Below, piece after piece: positions 1,541 to 30,498 of a stretch of DNA of 32,218 nucleotides. The position numbers were made by a program, and so were the translations under genes. Below the pieces are notes generated by a model, which was given only the letters and a program-made list of their open reading frames with translations, was not told where the DNA came from and made no database searches. Numbering within the stretch: the stretch's first letter is position 1; each line of letters begins with the position of its first letter. The DNA is from Kordia jejudonensis (GTDB lineage Bacteria; Bacteroidota; Bacteroidia; Flavobacteriales; Flavobacteriaceae): NCBI RefSeq assembly GCF_001005315.1, contig NZ_LBMG01000057.1:1-32218 (forward strand), in the 5' to 3' direction.

Positions 1541-2110
1541 TTATTTTAAATATTTTGATGTGACTTTCGGAACAAAATTCTGCATTCGATCTAGCAATCG
1601 TGTACTATCTGTTTCTATGATGAGCATGTCAAAGTTCTTTTCTTTGAGTAAACCTTTTTTCATCATGGTGTGCATCATTGCAATCAGTTCATCATAATAA
1701 CCGTTACTATTCAAAATTGCCACAGGATGTTTCATTTGTCCCAATTGCAATGCCGTAATGACTTCAAAAAGTTCTTCCATCGTGCCAAATCCACCTGGAA
1801 GCGCAATAAAACCTTCGGCTAGATCAATCATTTTCATCTTGCGTTCTACCATAGTTTTTGTGGTGTGCAACTCCGAAATACCAAGATGTGCTACTTCCCT
1901 ACTTTTTAGAAATTCAGGAATAATTCCAATAACTGTTCCGCCATTTTCTAATACAGTATTTGCGACAACGCCCATAATACCAACTTGCGAACCGCCATAA
2001 ATCAAGGTTATATTCTTTGTGGCTAACGCTTTTCCAAGTTCGCGTGCATCCGTTACAATTTTGTCATCATTTCCTAAACTGCTTCCGCAATATACTGCTA
2101 TACTTTTCAT
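1541..2110 (-). CDS. LOG-family (TIGR00730) nucleotide phosphoribohydrolase-like protein
   Basis: A 189-residue Rossmann-fold protein starting MKSIAVYCGSSLGND, the usual start of TIGR00730/LOG proteins. It carries GGSQVGIMGVVA (about 41-52) and the family signature PGGFGTMEELFE (about 97-108), whose Arg/Glu region binds and hydrolyses nucleoside 5'-monophosphates to a free base plus ribose 5-phosphate. In bacteria such enzymes act in nucleotide salvage or cytokinin-like chemistry; the substrate is not readable here. The ATG at 2108-2110 is chosen because the frame upstream is only the TTTTGGG array, which would add a meaningless PKTQN repeat. The array begins one base before the start codon, so the native promoter must lie more than 500 bp away or inside the repeat. 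Confidence 0.88.
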   Translation of the reverse strand: MKSIAVYCGSSLGNDDKIVTDARELGKALATKNITLIYGGSQVGIMGVVANTVLENGGTVIGIIPEFLKSREVAHLGISELHTTKTMVERKMKMIDLAEGFIALPGGFGTMEELFEVITALQLGQMKHPVAILNSNGYYDELIAMMHTMMKKGLLKEKNFDMLIIETDSTRLLDRMQNFVPKVTSKYLK

Positions 2111-2111
2111 T

Positions 2112-2633
2112 TTTTGGGTTTTGGGTTTTGGGTTTTGGGTTTTGGGTTTTGGGTTTTGGGTTTTGGGTTTTGGGTTTTGGGTTTTGGGTTTTGGGTTTTG
2201 GGTTTTGGGTTTTGGGTTTTGGGTTTTGGGTTTTGGGTTTTGGGTTTTGGGTTTTGGGTTTTGGGTTTTGGGTTTTGGGTTTTGGGTTTTGGGTTTTGGG
2301 TTTTGGGTTTTGGGTTTTGGGTTTTGGGTTTTGGGTTTTGGGTTTTGGGTTTTGGGTTTTGGGTTTTGGGTTTTGGGTTTTGGGTTTTGGGTTTTGGGTT
2401 TTGGGTTTTGGGTTTTGGGTTTTGGGTTTTGGGTTTTGGGTTTTGGGTTTTGGGTTTTGGGTTTTGGGTTTTGGGTTTTGGGTTTTGGGTTTTGGGTTTT
2501 GGGTTTTGGGTTTTGGGTTTTGGGTTTTGGGTTTTGGGTTTTGGGTTTTGGGTTTTGGGTTTTGGGTTTTGGGTTTTGGGTTTTGGGTTTTGGGTTTTGG
2601 GTTTTGGGTTTTGGGTTTTGGGTTTTGGGTTTT
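2112..2633 (+). repeat. (TTTTGGG)74 perfect heptanucleotide array
   Basis: Positions 2112-2629 are 74 uninterrupted copies of TTTTGGG, followed by TTTT. The phase was checked at each 60-base line and no unit deviates. The plus strand therefore carries 74 GGG tracts with T4 loops, strong G-quadruplex potential, and this strand is the template for the LOG gene starting at 2110. A 7-bp unit leaves all frames open on both strands, which creates large spurious ORFs. Perfect homogeneity implies recent expansion or active homogenisation. Confidence 0.97.
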
Positions 2634-2713
2634 AAAAATGTTAGTTCTAAATGTTTCATCCAAATGCAAACTACTAAACTTATAAACACAGAAGCTGCCT
2701 TTATTGCTCTTTG
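2634..2713 (+). repeat. 80-bp composite-repeat core, copy 1
   Basis: This 80-bp segment recurs at 3919-3998 with 78/80 identity; both differences are G/A. It joins the TTTTGGG array to the TTCTATG array. It has no credible coding content. On the minus strand it contains TAAGTTTA, one base from the Bacteroidetes -7 box, so it could carry promoter activity toward the LOG gene, but no -33 element is evident. Confidence 0.9.
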
Positions 2714-2769
2714 TTCTATGTTCTTTGTCCTATGTTCTATGTTCTATGTTCTATGTTCTATGTTCTATG
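2714..2769 (+). repeat. TTCTATG heptamer array, 8 units
   Basis: Eight 7-bp units: six perfect TTCTATG plus TTCTTTG and TCCTATG. The matching array in the second composite (3999-4012) has only two units, so the tract varies in copy number between otherwise near-identical loci. Confidence 0.92.
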
Positions 2770-2833
2770 TTTAATTGAAACTAATAATTTTACATTCAGC
2801 ATTTAACATTCAACATTTATAATTTCAAAATTC
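2770..2833 (+). repeat. Anchor TTTAATTGAAACTAAT plus CATTCAA-type units
   Basis: The anchor (2770-2785) is followed by three CATTCAA-like units and the tail CATTTATAATTTCAAA. The same order, with two units, occurs at 4013-4069, and the anchor recurs at 2888-2903. The tail also recurs at 26818-26833 beside another heptamer array. Confidence 0.85.
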
Positions 2834-2887
2834 GTTATTCGTTATTCGTTATTCTATATTCTTTGTTATTTGTTATTTGTTATTTGT
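2834..2887 (+). repeat. GTTATTC and TTATTTG heptamer arrays
   Basis: Three GTTATTC units (2834-2854), a short variant stretch, then about three TTATTTG-type units lead into the second anchor copy. The second composite locus lacks this block, so locus 1 looks like an extended form. The TTATTCG phase of the same unit recurs at 17973-18007. Confidence 0.85.
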
Positions 2888-2965
2888 TTAATTGAAACTA
2901 ATCTTTTTTCATTCAACATTCAACATTCAACATTCAGCATTCAACATTCAACATTCAACATTTAA
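2888..2965 (+). repeat. Second anchor and CATTCAA array, 8 units
   Basis: The anchor TTTAATTGAAACTAAT (2888-2903) precedes eight 7-bp units at 2910-2965: six CATTCAA, one CATTCAG, one CATTTAA. The array ends three bases before the prmC stop codon, so prmC is bordered by heptamer arrays at both ends. Confidence 0.9.
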
Positions 2966-2968
2966 AAT

Positions 2969-3841
2969 TTAAAAAGTTCCTCTTAACATTCGGTCAACGC
3001 CAAAAATATCTTTGCGCAATTCAACAGCTGTATATTCTTTATTTTTCAATAGTGAAACCATTTCTTTCCCTAAGTATTGATTGATTTCAAAGAATAAATT
3101 TCCACTAGATTGTAAGTTCGCTTTCGCGAGATCGGCTATTTTGTCGTAAAATACCAACGGGTTTTCATCTTCTACAAATAACGCAGAATCAGGCTCGTAT
3201 GCCAATACGTTTTTCTGCATCATTTCTTTTTCTAAATTTCGCACATATGGCGGATTGGACACAATGATGTCAAATGATGTTGGGTTTTCTTTGCTGAAAT
3301 TCAAATCTGTAAGTTGTAAAACATCCGCTTGTACAAACTGAATCTCAACTTGAATGATTTCAGCATTTTTCTGAGCAATTTGTAACGCTTCCGCAGAAAT
3401 ATCTATGGCGGTAATTTCCGCATTGGGAAGATTCTTTTTCAACGCAATCGGAATGCAACCGCTTCCTGTGCCAATGTCTAAAATTCGAAGCTTTCGCGTG
3501 ATTGCATCATTTTGTACTGTATCTAAAATCCATTGTACCAATTCTTCTGTTTCTGGTCGTGGAATTAGTGTATGTTCATTTACACAAAATTCCAATCCAA
3601 AAAAATGTGTTTTCCCTAATATATGTTGAATTGGTTTCTCCAGTTTCAATTCGCTCAAAGCGGCAAACATTGGAGTTTCTTGCTCTTTCGTGATCGTATA
3701 TTCAGGATCTAACGCCAAGGTAAAACGTACCAAACCAAAATAGGCTTCCGTCAACATGAAAAAGAAACTGTCTACTTCGTTTTTTCCGTAGATTTCATCT
3801 AATTCTTTGTGAAATATGCTTTGTATATCTTTTAATCGCAA
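2969..3841 (-). CDS. prmC: Peptide chain release factor N5-glutamine methyltransferase
   Basis: A 290-residue PrmC/HemK protein, which uses S-adenosylmethionine to methylate the GGQ glutamine of release factors RF1/RF2 in the cytoplasm. Residues 1-90 form the helical substrate domain. The Rossmann methyltransferase domain shows LDIGTGSGCIPIAL (about 121-134, SAM binding) and the hallmark catalytic NPPYV (about 196-200). Length and N-terminus (RLKDIQSIFHKEL) match flavobacterial PrmC. The start codon is TTG at 3839-3841: no ATG lies between it and an in-frame TAA at 3875-3877 within the array, and the next internal Met is too far in. The repeat array abuts this TTG, which may affect initiation. 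Confidence 0.93.
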   Translation of the reverse strand: MRLKDIQSIFHKELDEIYGKNEVDSFFFMLTEAYFGLVRFTLALDPEYTITKEQETPMFAALSELKLEKPIQHILGKTHFFGLEFCVNEHTLIPRPETEELVQWILDTVQNDAITRKLRILDIGTGSGCIPIALKKNLPNAEITAIDISAEALQIAQKNAEIIQVEIQFVQADVLQLTDLNFSKENPTSFDIIVSNPPYVRNLEKEMMQKNVLAYEPDSALFVEDENPLVFYDKIADLAKANLQSSGNLFFEINQYLGKEMVSLLKNKEYTAVELRKDIFGVDRMLRGTF

Positions 3842-3918
3842 GGGTTTTGGGTTTTGGGTTTTAGGTTTTAGGTTTTAGGTTTTAGGTTTTAGGTTTTAGG
3901 TTTTAGGTTTTAGGTTTT
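3842..3918 (+). repeat. Short heptamer array: TTTTGGG x2, TTTTAGG x8
   Basis: GGG (3842-3844), two TTTTGGG (3845-3858), then eight perfect TTTTAGG (3859-3914) and TTTT. It takes the same place relative to prmC and the 80-bp core as the 74-copy array does for the LOG gene. The shift to a uniform TTTTAGG block indicates that one variant unit spread by slippage or conversion. Confidence 0.95.
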
Positions 3919-3998
3919 AAAAATATTAGTTCTAAATGTTTCATCCAAATGCAAACTACTAAACTTATAAACACAGAAACTGCCTTTATTGCTCTTTG
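3919..3998 (+). repeat. 80-bp composite-repeat core, copy 2
   Basis: Same length and 78/80 identical to 2634-2713, same orientation, again between a TTTTGGG-type array and a TTCTATG array. It shows that the composite is a duplicated unit rather than chance low complexity. Confidence 0.9.
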
Positions 3999-4069
3999 TT
4001 CTATGTTCTATGTTTAGTTGAAACTAATAATTTCACATTCAACATTTAGCATTTATAATTTCAAAATTC
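3999..4069 (+). repeat. Composite repeat tail: TTCTATG x2, anchor, CATTCAA x2
   Basis: Two TTCTATG units (3999-4012), an anchor variant with one change (TTTAGTTGAAACTAAT), two CATTCAA-like units, and the tail ending AAAATTC at 4069. It is collinear with 2714-2833 but with fewer units in each array. From 4070 to the GNAT stop the sequence is ordinary AT-rich spacer. Confidence 0.88.
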
Positions 4070-23648: not shown

Positions 23649-23810
23649 GGTTTACTTATTTTTTCCCTACTCTTTTTACTATCAGGCTTTTCGGATTCCG
23701 CCCATATTATGAAAGCTTTCAAATGTAAGTTAATACGTATAAGTTTTGTTACCCGATAAAGTGCAATAAAAAAAGTGTTTCATTTGTTTACGAAAACGTT
23801 TGAAATTGTA

Positions 23811-26734: not shown

Positions 26735-26781
26735 TCTTGGGTCTTGGGTCTTGGGTCTTGGGTCTTGGGTCTTGGGTCTTG
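26735..26781 (+). repeat. TCTTGGG heptamer array, 6.7 units
   Basis: Six perfect TCTTGGG units (26735-26776) and TCTTG start four bases after the trmD stop. After a spacer, CATTTATAATTTCAAA (26818-26833) matches the tail of the composites at 2833 and 4069, so this is a third, shortened relative of that repeat family. Confidence 0.92.
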
Positions 26782-26871: not shown

Positions 26872-26944
26872 CACTCAATTTTGGATTAACCTCTGGCGAT
26901 AGACGTGAATGTTGATTTGAATTAAATTATATAAAAAGTTTAAA

Positions 26945-30414: not shown

Positions 30415-30489
30415 GGGCGTTCCCAAAGGTCGTGCTATCCACTATATCTCCCGAAAAAAACGGGAGGATGCCGTTCCTATCACTAACGC
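30415..30489. repeat. Interspersed 'GGGCGTTCCC...TAACGC' element with hairpin
   Basis: GGGCGTTCCC opens and CACTAACGC closes this 75-bp segment, with GCGTT (30417-30421) complementary to AACGC (30485-30489) and a central CTCCCG-A7-CGGGAG hairpin (30448-30466). It matches a pattern remembered from many Flavobacteriia genomes (GGGCGT..., GCTATCC...TATATC, GATGCCGTTCCTATC...TAACGC). It is a known type of interspersed sequence of unknown role. Just before it, AAAATTTAGAATTC recurs from 26802. Confidence 0.6.
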
Positions 30490-30498
30490 AAAAAACCG

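What the first reader, a model, noticed from the sequence alone, without database searches (positions are those of the whole stretch)
2112..2633. A perfect 74-copy TTTTGGG array directly in front of a start codon
518 bp are 74 identical 7-bp units, with no deviation, starting one base before the ATG of the LOG-family gene. The unit resembles eukaryotic telomere repeats and gives the template strand 74 GGG tracts, strong G-quadruplex potential. A transcript reading into the gene would need a (CCCAAAA)n leader over 500 nt long. Since 7 is not a multiple of 3, gain or loss of a unit changes the frame of anything translated through it. Such length and purity suggest recent expansion and probable variation between cells.
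Basis: partly seen in the sequence, partly recalled or inferred. Interest (0 to 1): 0.8.

Follow-up and report, generated by a model that had tools for sequence, protein, structure and literature searches.

The report
Expanded seven-letter repeat before a gene
A marine Kordia bacterium carries a very long, perfect seven-letter DNA repeat right in front of a gene; it looks like an extreme case of short repeats that are common between genes in this genus and tend to face the same way at gene edges, and its exact length may be an assembly guess.

Summary
The array is there as assembled: 522 bp, 74.6 perfect TTTTGGG units, one base from the conserved ATG of a LOG-family gene, in a 217-contig Kordia draft. 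It is not alone: intergenic arrays of period 7 and 8 (and multiples), with many units, occur in four Kordia genomes sampled, including PacBio-sequenced K. antarctica. Nine of ten relatives keep LOG beside prmC; none has this array there, but five of nine gaps hold another period-7 array. CCCAAAA-like seeds precede the same start codons in some relatives, so local expansion fits best. In Kordia, arrays within 20 nt of a gene have their A/C-rich strand pointing into the gene, at starts (35 of 37) and at stops (55 of 72), the latter against background. The array's sense strand is only A and C: no promoter, no stop, no RNA structure, so LOG is probably little affected; but an upstream in-frame ATG (2659) reads through it into LOG. 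The count of 74 is doubtful: the two longest arrays seen in this genome are 522 and 505 bp, both perfect; the next is 200 bp. New member of a known kind.

The parts
2112..2633 (-). (CCCAAAA)74.6 array on the sense strand of LOG; TTTTGGG on the + strand
   Evidence: TRF 100% match; base count T300 G222
1541..2110 (-). LOG-family gene (PF03641, 'possible lysine decarboxylase'; LOG name recalled), start codon one base from the array
   Evidence: PF03641 E=4e-40; start matched in 9 relatives
1541..2659 (-). Longer open frame: ATG at 2659, linker, heptapeptide repeat through the array, then LOG in frame; probably not the real protein
   Evidence: translation without stop until the LOG stop
2634..2728 (-). 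95-bp linker next to the array, with copies at 3919-4013 (97%) and at G000:C174:31664-31758 (96%)
2708..2771 (-). (ACATAGA)9.1 array
   Evidence: as TCTATGT on +
2830..2888 (-). (AACGAAT)8 array, imperfect
   Evidence: as ATTCGTT on +
2910..2962 (-). (TTGAATG)7.6 array, just after the prmC stop codon
2969..3841 (-). prmC-like methyltransferase gene, TTG start
   Evidence: PF05175, PF17827; TTG at this place in the 10 relatives printed
3843..3919 (-). (TAAAACC)11 array running into AAAACCC units, abutting the prmC start
26735..26781 (+). (TCTTGGG)6.7 array right after a stop codon: T/G-rich in the sense of the upstream gene

Best explanation
The array is a heptanucleotide long simple-sequence repeat that grew in place, by strand slippage or unequal recombination, from a few A/C-rich units lying before the LOG start codon, inside a gap that was also lengthened by copies of dispersed Kordia intergenic modules. 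It is non-coding spacer between prmC and LOG, probably within one transcript. It is tolerated at that spot because its sense strand has only A and C: it makes no RNA structure, no stop, no start and no promoter, and leaves A-rich unpaired sequence at the ribosome site, which suits a phylum that starts translation without Shine-Dalgarno pairing. Shown: array, linker copies, absence in relatives, seeds at start codons, other period-7 arrays in the same gap, strand rule, lack of predicted RNA structure. Inferred: slippage as the engine, order of events, co-transcription, near-neutrality for LOG. The exact copy number is not secure.
For: Nine relatives with LOG and prmC adjacent have 66-337 bp between the prmC match and the LOG ATG against 858 here, without this array. 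Five of these nine gaps hold another period-7 array at a low TRF threshold (GAATAAA x7.1, CAATCAA x6.4, AAAAGTG x5.0, TTAGTAT x4.6, and a weak AAAACAC x2.3); shuffled gaps gave a mean of 0.39 and at most 2 in 100 runs. Seed-like AAACCCAAAACCCA before the prmC TTG in G001 and CCAAAAACCAAAACA before the LOG ATG in G008. Period 7 and 8 arrays above shuffles in four Kordia genomes. Arrays also in the PacBio genome of K. antarctica (G004, identified by its length 5,500,985). Sense RNA across the array: MFE -2 kcal/mol, the only helix in LOG coding sequence, no better than shuffles. Upstream adenines and low structure favour initiation in Flavobacterium johnsoniae (PMC6847099, passages seen).
Against: No reads, no second strain of the species, no expression data: slippage and neutrality are inferred. 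Slippage alone does not explain the strand rule at stop codons, which runs against local composition. The 95-bp linker next to the array has near-identical copies elsewhere in this genome, so the array edge may have arrived with a module rather than grown from a local seed. The other relatives show no clear CCCAAAA seed at LOG. An in-frame upstream ATG reads through the array.
Confidence: 0.6

Rival explanations
1. The array exists but its length is an assembly product: a short-read assembler or gap filler closed a repeat loop and printed a perfect array of about the insert size. (Not exclusive of the best explanation.)
For: In the 1.55 Mb of this genome read, plus the window, the two longest arrays of period 7, 8, 14, 16 or 21 are 522 and 505 bp, both 100% perfect, with different units and periods; the next are 200 and 146 bp. 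Longest in the stretches read of K. algicida 142 bp, K. antarctica 99 bp, G003 95 bp. 10 of the 65 gap-like matches lie within 600 bp of a contig end, 9 more could not be judged for lack of contig length; such ends make up about 5% of the genome, so the assembly tends to break at such DNA.
Against: The contig was not broken here; the sequencing method of this genome is unknown; only about 30% of this genome and 7-8% of three relatives were read; the array type itself is real in the genus.
Confidence: 0.4
2. A contingency locus: unit gain and loss switches production of an N-terminally extended LOG, or tunes LOG output.
For: At the present length an ATG at 2659 is in frame through the whole array with LOG; the array has no stop codon in any frame on either strand, since + has only T and G and - only A and C.
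Against: One length in three would be in frame by chance. The nine relatives printed start LOG at the internal ATG and lack the linker and array there. The upstream ATG lies in a linker present elsewhere; in the copy at prmC the same frame meets TAA in the CCTAAAA units (my reading). No fold is predicted for the sense RNA.
Confidence: 0.1
3. The arrays are parts or ends of a dispersed intergenic element (module with linker and palindrome TTAGTTTCAACTAA) that moves between gaps and carries the heptamers along.
For: 95-bp linker at 96-100% in three places of this genome and at 72% in K. algicida; 65 matches to the gap sequence in this genome (many are heptamer likeness only); similar order of blocks in several printed clusters.
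Against: Target duplications and constant ends were not searched for, and none struck the eye; units in the same gap differ between species; Y1 transposase matches occur in 6 of 11 and RVT_1 in 5 of 11 Kordia genomes and do not track the arrays.
Confidence: 0.25
4. A telomere-like or reverse-transcribed end addition: G-rich repeats added to 3' ends at breaks and then sealed.
For: Unit looks telomere-like (recalled); near both gene sides the T/G-rich strand runs away from the gene.
Against: Site is internal and between conserved genes; RVT_1 has 0 matches in this draft genome; many units lack G runs.
Confidence: 0.02

Closest known systems
Heptanucleotide long simple-sequence repeats of bacteria (Mrazek and co-workers 2007, not seen; as told in PMC4679880 and PMC4692102)
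   Same: Unit of 7, longer than chance, mainly intergenic, 7 the favoured length
   Different: Here many arrays are A/C- or T/G-skewed with a preferred direction at gene edges; period 8 too; extreme length as assembled
TAACTGA direct repeats before start codons (MacGregor 2015, PMC4679880; sections 3 and 12 and passages read)
   Same: Heptamer arrays within a few bases of start codons, forward orientation, mixed with other heptamers in some Flavobacteriia (Gramella, Aequorivita, Elizabethkingia); one reversed set just after a stop codon
   Different: Other unit; up to 43 copies there; no general rule for stop codons in what I read
GGGAATC and GGGGA(C/T)T G-quadruplex heptamers of Xanthomonas and Nostoc (PMC4692102; sections 10 and 11 and passages read)
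   Same: G-rich heptamers, mostly intergenic, with quadruplex potential, in Xanthomonas often as inverted pairs in close proximity
   Different: There up to 26 units, and in Xanthomonas mostly between the same genes in two species; here the place recurs but the unit changes between species

Membership tests
Heptanucleotide long simple-sequence repeat | Period-7 tandem array longer than chance | tested here: met
Heptanucleotide long simple-sequence repeat | Mostly outside coding sequence | tested here: met
   period-7 arrays: 17 of 18 intergenic in the three sets called unbiased
Heptanucleotide long simple-sequence repeat | Copy number changes by slippage | not testable with these tools
   no reads or sister strains; species differ at the locus
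TAACTGA repeat family | Unit TAACTGA | tested here: not met
   unit is CCCAAAA
TAACTGA repeat family | Within several nt upstream of a start codon | tested here: met
   one base before ATG
Phase-variable repeat (contingency locus) | Repeat inside the reading frame or between promoter elements of the gene | tested here: inconclusive
   conserved start is downstream of the array, yet an upstream ATG is in frame; promoter not mapped
Phase-variable repeat (contingency locus) | Length differs between cells of one culture | not testable with these tools
   no reads
Telomeric repeat | Lies at a replicon end | tested here: not met
   between LOG and prmC, which are neighbours in 9 of 10 relatives
Telomeric repeat | Telomerase-type reverse transcriptase | tested here: not met
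   0 RVT_1 matches in this draft genome; 5 of 11 in the genus, type not examined
G-quadruplex heptamer repeat | Four or more GGG tracts with loops of 1-7 | tested here: met
   TTTTGGG x74 on the + strand
G-quadruplex heptamer repeat | Folds into a quadruplex | not tested
   the folding tool used was not asked for quadruplexes

The most novel reading that the evidence does not exclude
Kordia marks gene edges with an actively made or maintained set of 7- and 8-bp arrays whose A/C-rich strand points into the gene on both sides, a direction-coded boundary system read at DNA or RNA level, of which this array is an overgrown case.
Probability: 0.1. Interest if true: 0.75.

Novelty: new member of a known kind. 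Interest (0 to 1): 0.42.

Why it matters
Heptanucleotides are reported as the favoured long repeat unit in most bacteria surveyed, but why seven, and what decides their place, is open. Kordia offers a genus where arrays with different units turn up in the same gap in different species and with a preferred strand direction at gene edges, so both questions can be tested by comparing strains. The array itself is a caution on trusting copy numbers from draft assemblies.

Tried and rejected
Rejected: telomere reading (internal, no RVT_1 in this genome); promoter inside the array (sense strand has only A and C); a structured leader; a reverse transcriptase or Y1 transposase as genus-wide driver (5 and 6 of 11 genomes). 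Led nowhere: Rfam search of the window gave three hits away from the array; paper searches for Kordia repeats listed nothing on the arrays; passages of PMC5525439 told nothing on this assembly. The built-in control of the pattern search (pattern read backwards) is no control here, since the reversed pattern fits the same arrays.

Against the strand rule as a general law: in 75 loci of other Flavobacteriaceae (all prmC neighbourhoods) arrays within 60 nt gave starts 5 in, 1 away and stops 6 in, 9 away; beyond 60 nt starts 0 in, 10 away and stops 3 in, 7 away, ties counted as away. So it was not seen there at stops. In Kordia it fades beyond 20 nt at stops and beyond 60 nt at starts. Other periods (such as 11, 12, 20) also exceed shuffles in some sets.

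Limits of the counts: my gene finder takes the first ATG of frames of 80 codons or more; it merged the 522-bp array into LOG, so that array is not in the strand counts, and it misplaces genes with TTG starts such as prmC. Dropped: arrays whose middle lies in a called frame, periods other than 7, 8, 14, 16, 21, arrays without a flanking gene. Within 20 nt includes overlaps of up to 50 nt. 41 of the 80 discovery stretches, and the window, were picked because they hold or adjoin arrays; of the 60 hold-out stretches the two C124 ends and C2 were near known matches, and several others came from contigs known to hold arrays, outside the known places. A figure (10 of 36 matches near contig ends) rested on a part list that I had picked unevenly; one search recounted all 65.

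Full report
OBSERVATION. The array stands at 2112-2633 with period 7, 74.6 copies and no mismatch; it holds 300 T and 222 G on the + strand. One T separates it from the ATG of a minus-strand LOG-family gene at 1541-2110. In gene sense it reads (CCCAAAA)n-A-ATG. It lies in an 858-bp gap between LOG and a prmC-like gene (2969-3841), and a second array (TAAAACC, then AAAACCC units, 3843-3919) abuts the TTG start of prmC in the same way. The rest of the LOG-prmC gap also holds heptamers: ACATAGA x9.1, AACGAAT x8, TTGAATG x7.6.

ORGANISM. The window is contig 171 of a 217-contig, 5.36-Mb draft. Handle G004 (5,500,985 bp) equals the complete PacBio genome of K. antarctica IMCC3317 by length (section 5 of PMC7477175 read). 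The species of the window is not known.

NOT ALONE. The 21-mer of three units was sought in 40 genomes: 9 have it, 8 of the 11 in the genus (own genome included) and 1 of 29 outside. In stretches chosen by contig and place rather than for arrays (800-kb scale for this genome, 160-400 kb for the others), non-coding DNA of G000, G003, G009 and G004 shows period-7 counts of 11, 5, 7 and 6 against shuffled means of 0, 0.2, 0.2 and 0, and period-8 counts of 12, 4, 1 and 2 against 0, 0.2, 0 and 0; other Flavobacteriaceae (75 prmC loci) show periods 7, 14 and 21 at 8, 16 and 8 against 0, 1.2 and 0.2, and one of period 8. Units vary greatly, and several printed clusters repeat a module of similar order with a linker. 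A 95-bp linker beside the array recurs at 97% at 3919-4013, at 96% on contig 174, and at 72% in K. algicida.

THE LOCUS IN RELATIVES. LOG and prmC are neighbours in nine of ten Kordia relatives; in G006 the matches lie about 10 kb apart. In the nine, 66-337 bp separate the prmC match from the LOG ATG, and none has this array. Five of nine gaps contain a different period-7 array at a low threshold, one of them weak, against a mean of 0.39 and a maximum of 2 in 100 shuffled sets; two more hold 9-bp arrays. Short CCCAAAA-like seeds lie at the same start codons in some relatives: AAACCCAAAACCCA before the prmC TTG in G001, CCAAAAACCAAAACA before the LOG ATG in G008; most relatives show none that clear at LOG. 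So the place and period recur while the unit changes, which favours repeated local birth and expansion.

STRAND RULE. For arrays of period 7, 8, 14, 16 or 21 in non-coding DNA I asked on which strand A+C exceeds half. In the discovery stretches, arrays within 20 nt of a start have the A/C-rich strand pointing into the gene in 30 of 32 (1 away, 1 tie), and within 20 nt of a stop in 35 of 47 (12 away). Array-free 40-nt windows near starts gave 521 in and 250 away of 844, near stops 290 in and 431 away of 770; Fisher p = 2e-4 and 5e-6, ties left out. On stretches fetched afterwards the rule held: 5 of 5 at starts, 20 of 25 at stops (4 away, 1 tie). Together: 35 of 37 and 55 of 72. At 21-60 nt it holds only for starts (19 of 22; stops 17 of 36), and farther away there is no bias (starts 22 of 39, stops 16 of 36). 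So arrays at the very edge are A/C-rich in sense before genes and mostly T/G-rich in sense after genes. At starts this agrees with the need for unpaired A-rich leaders in Bacteroidetes (PMC6847099, passages); at stops it goes against local composition and I have no good explanation. It was not seen at stops in 75 loci of other genera. The array of the finding follows the rule but is not in the counts, because the gene finder merged it into LOG.

FUNCTION. Since the sense strand has only A and C, no promoter can lie inside it, and LOG must be transcribed from upstream, probably with prmC. The RNA folds to -2 kcal/mol with its only helix inside LOG; 59 of 100 shuffles fold as well or better. LOG's own start is conserved, so I expect little effect of length on LOG. 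Against this stands one fact: an ATG at 2657-2659 is in frame through the whole array with LOG, giving a 372-residue frame with a heptapeptide repeat. One length in three would do so by chance, and the relatives printed lack the linker and array.

LENGTH. Among periods 7, 8, 14, 16 and 21, the two longest arrays in what I read of this genome are 522 and 505 bp (AACTAAAC x63.1, contig 112, before a gene whose protein I take for a hexapeptide-repeat protein), both perfect, and the next are 200 and 146 bp. K. algicida, K. antarctica and G003 reach 142, 99 and 95 bp in the stretches read. Of the 65 gap-like matches, 10 lie within 600 bp of a contig end and 9 could not be judged, where about 5% would be expected. 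Two unrelated units expanded to the same length, and perfect, is what gap filling would give; it is also what recent expansion could give. Only reads can decide.

KNOWN OR NEW. Heptanucleotides as the commonest long repeat, with slippage as proposed cause, are reported for 2007 work by Mrazek and colleagues as told in PMC4679880 (sections 3 and 12 read; passages) and PMC4692102 (sections 10 and 11 read; passages). Start-adjacent heptamers, mixed heptamers in Flavobacteriia, one reversed array after a stop codon, and inverted heptamer pairs in Xanthomonas are in those papers. I found no paper on the Kordia arrays or on a two-sided strand rule in the listings, in a library limited to open-licence papers. 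I file it as a new member of a known kind, with the strand rule as the part worth following.

Noticed in passing
L045:7882-8386 (G000:C112:127882-128386): Perfect 63-copy 8-bp array (AACTAAAC in gene sense), 505 bp, about 10 nt before a gene whose protein looks like a hexapeptide-repeat, gamma carbonic anhydrase-like protein (recalled, not tested); almost the same length as the array of the finding.
   Followed up: partly
1541-2659, minus strand: In-frame ATG upstream of the array; open frame of 372 residues with heptapeptide repeats running into LOG.
   Followed up: partly
2634-2728 and 3919-4013: Near-identical 95-bp linkers beside two heptamer arrays in neighbouring gaps, third copy on contig 174.
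   Followed up: yes
2969-3841, minus strand: prmC-like gene shows a TTG at the start position in the ten Kordia relatives printed.
   Followed up: partly
30424-30494, 26887-26914, 23664-23704: Rfam matches: Flavo-1 RNA, L19 leader of Flavobacteria, DUF805b motif.
   Followed up: no
26735-26781: Perfect TCTTGGG x6.7 array directly after a stop codon, T/G-rich in sense, as the strand rule predicts.
   Followed up: yes
L016:1300-2150: A module of several heptamer blocks is itself repeated in tandem, about four times by eye, on contig 152.
   Followed up: no
other Flavobacteriaceae loci L093-L167: Beyond 60 nt from starts all 10 arrays had the A/C-rich strand pointing away from the gene (ties counted as away), unlike Kordia.
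   Followed up: no
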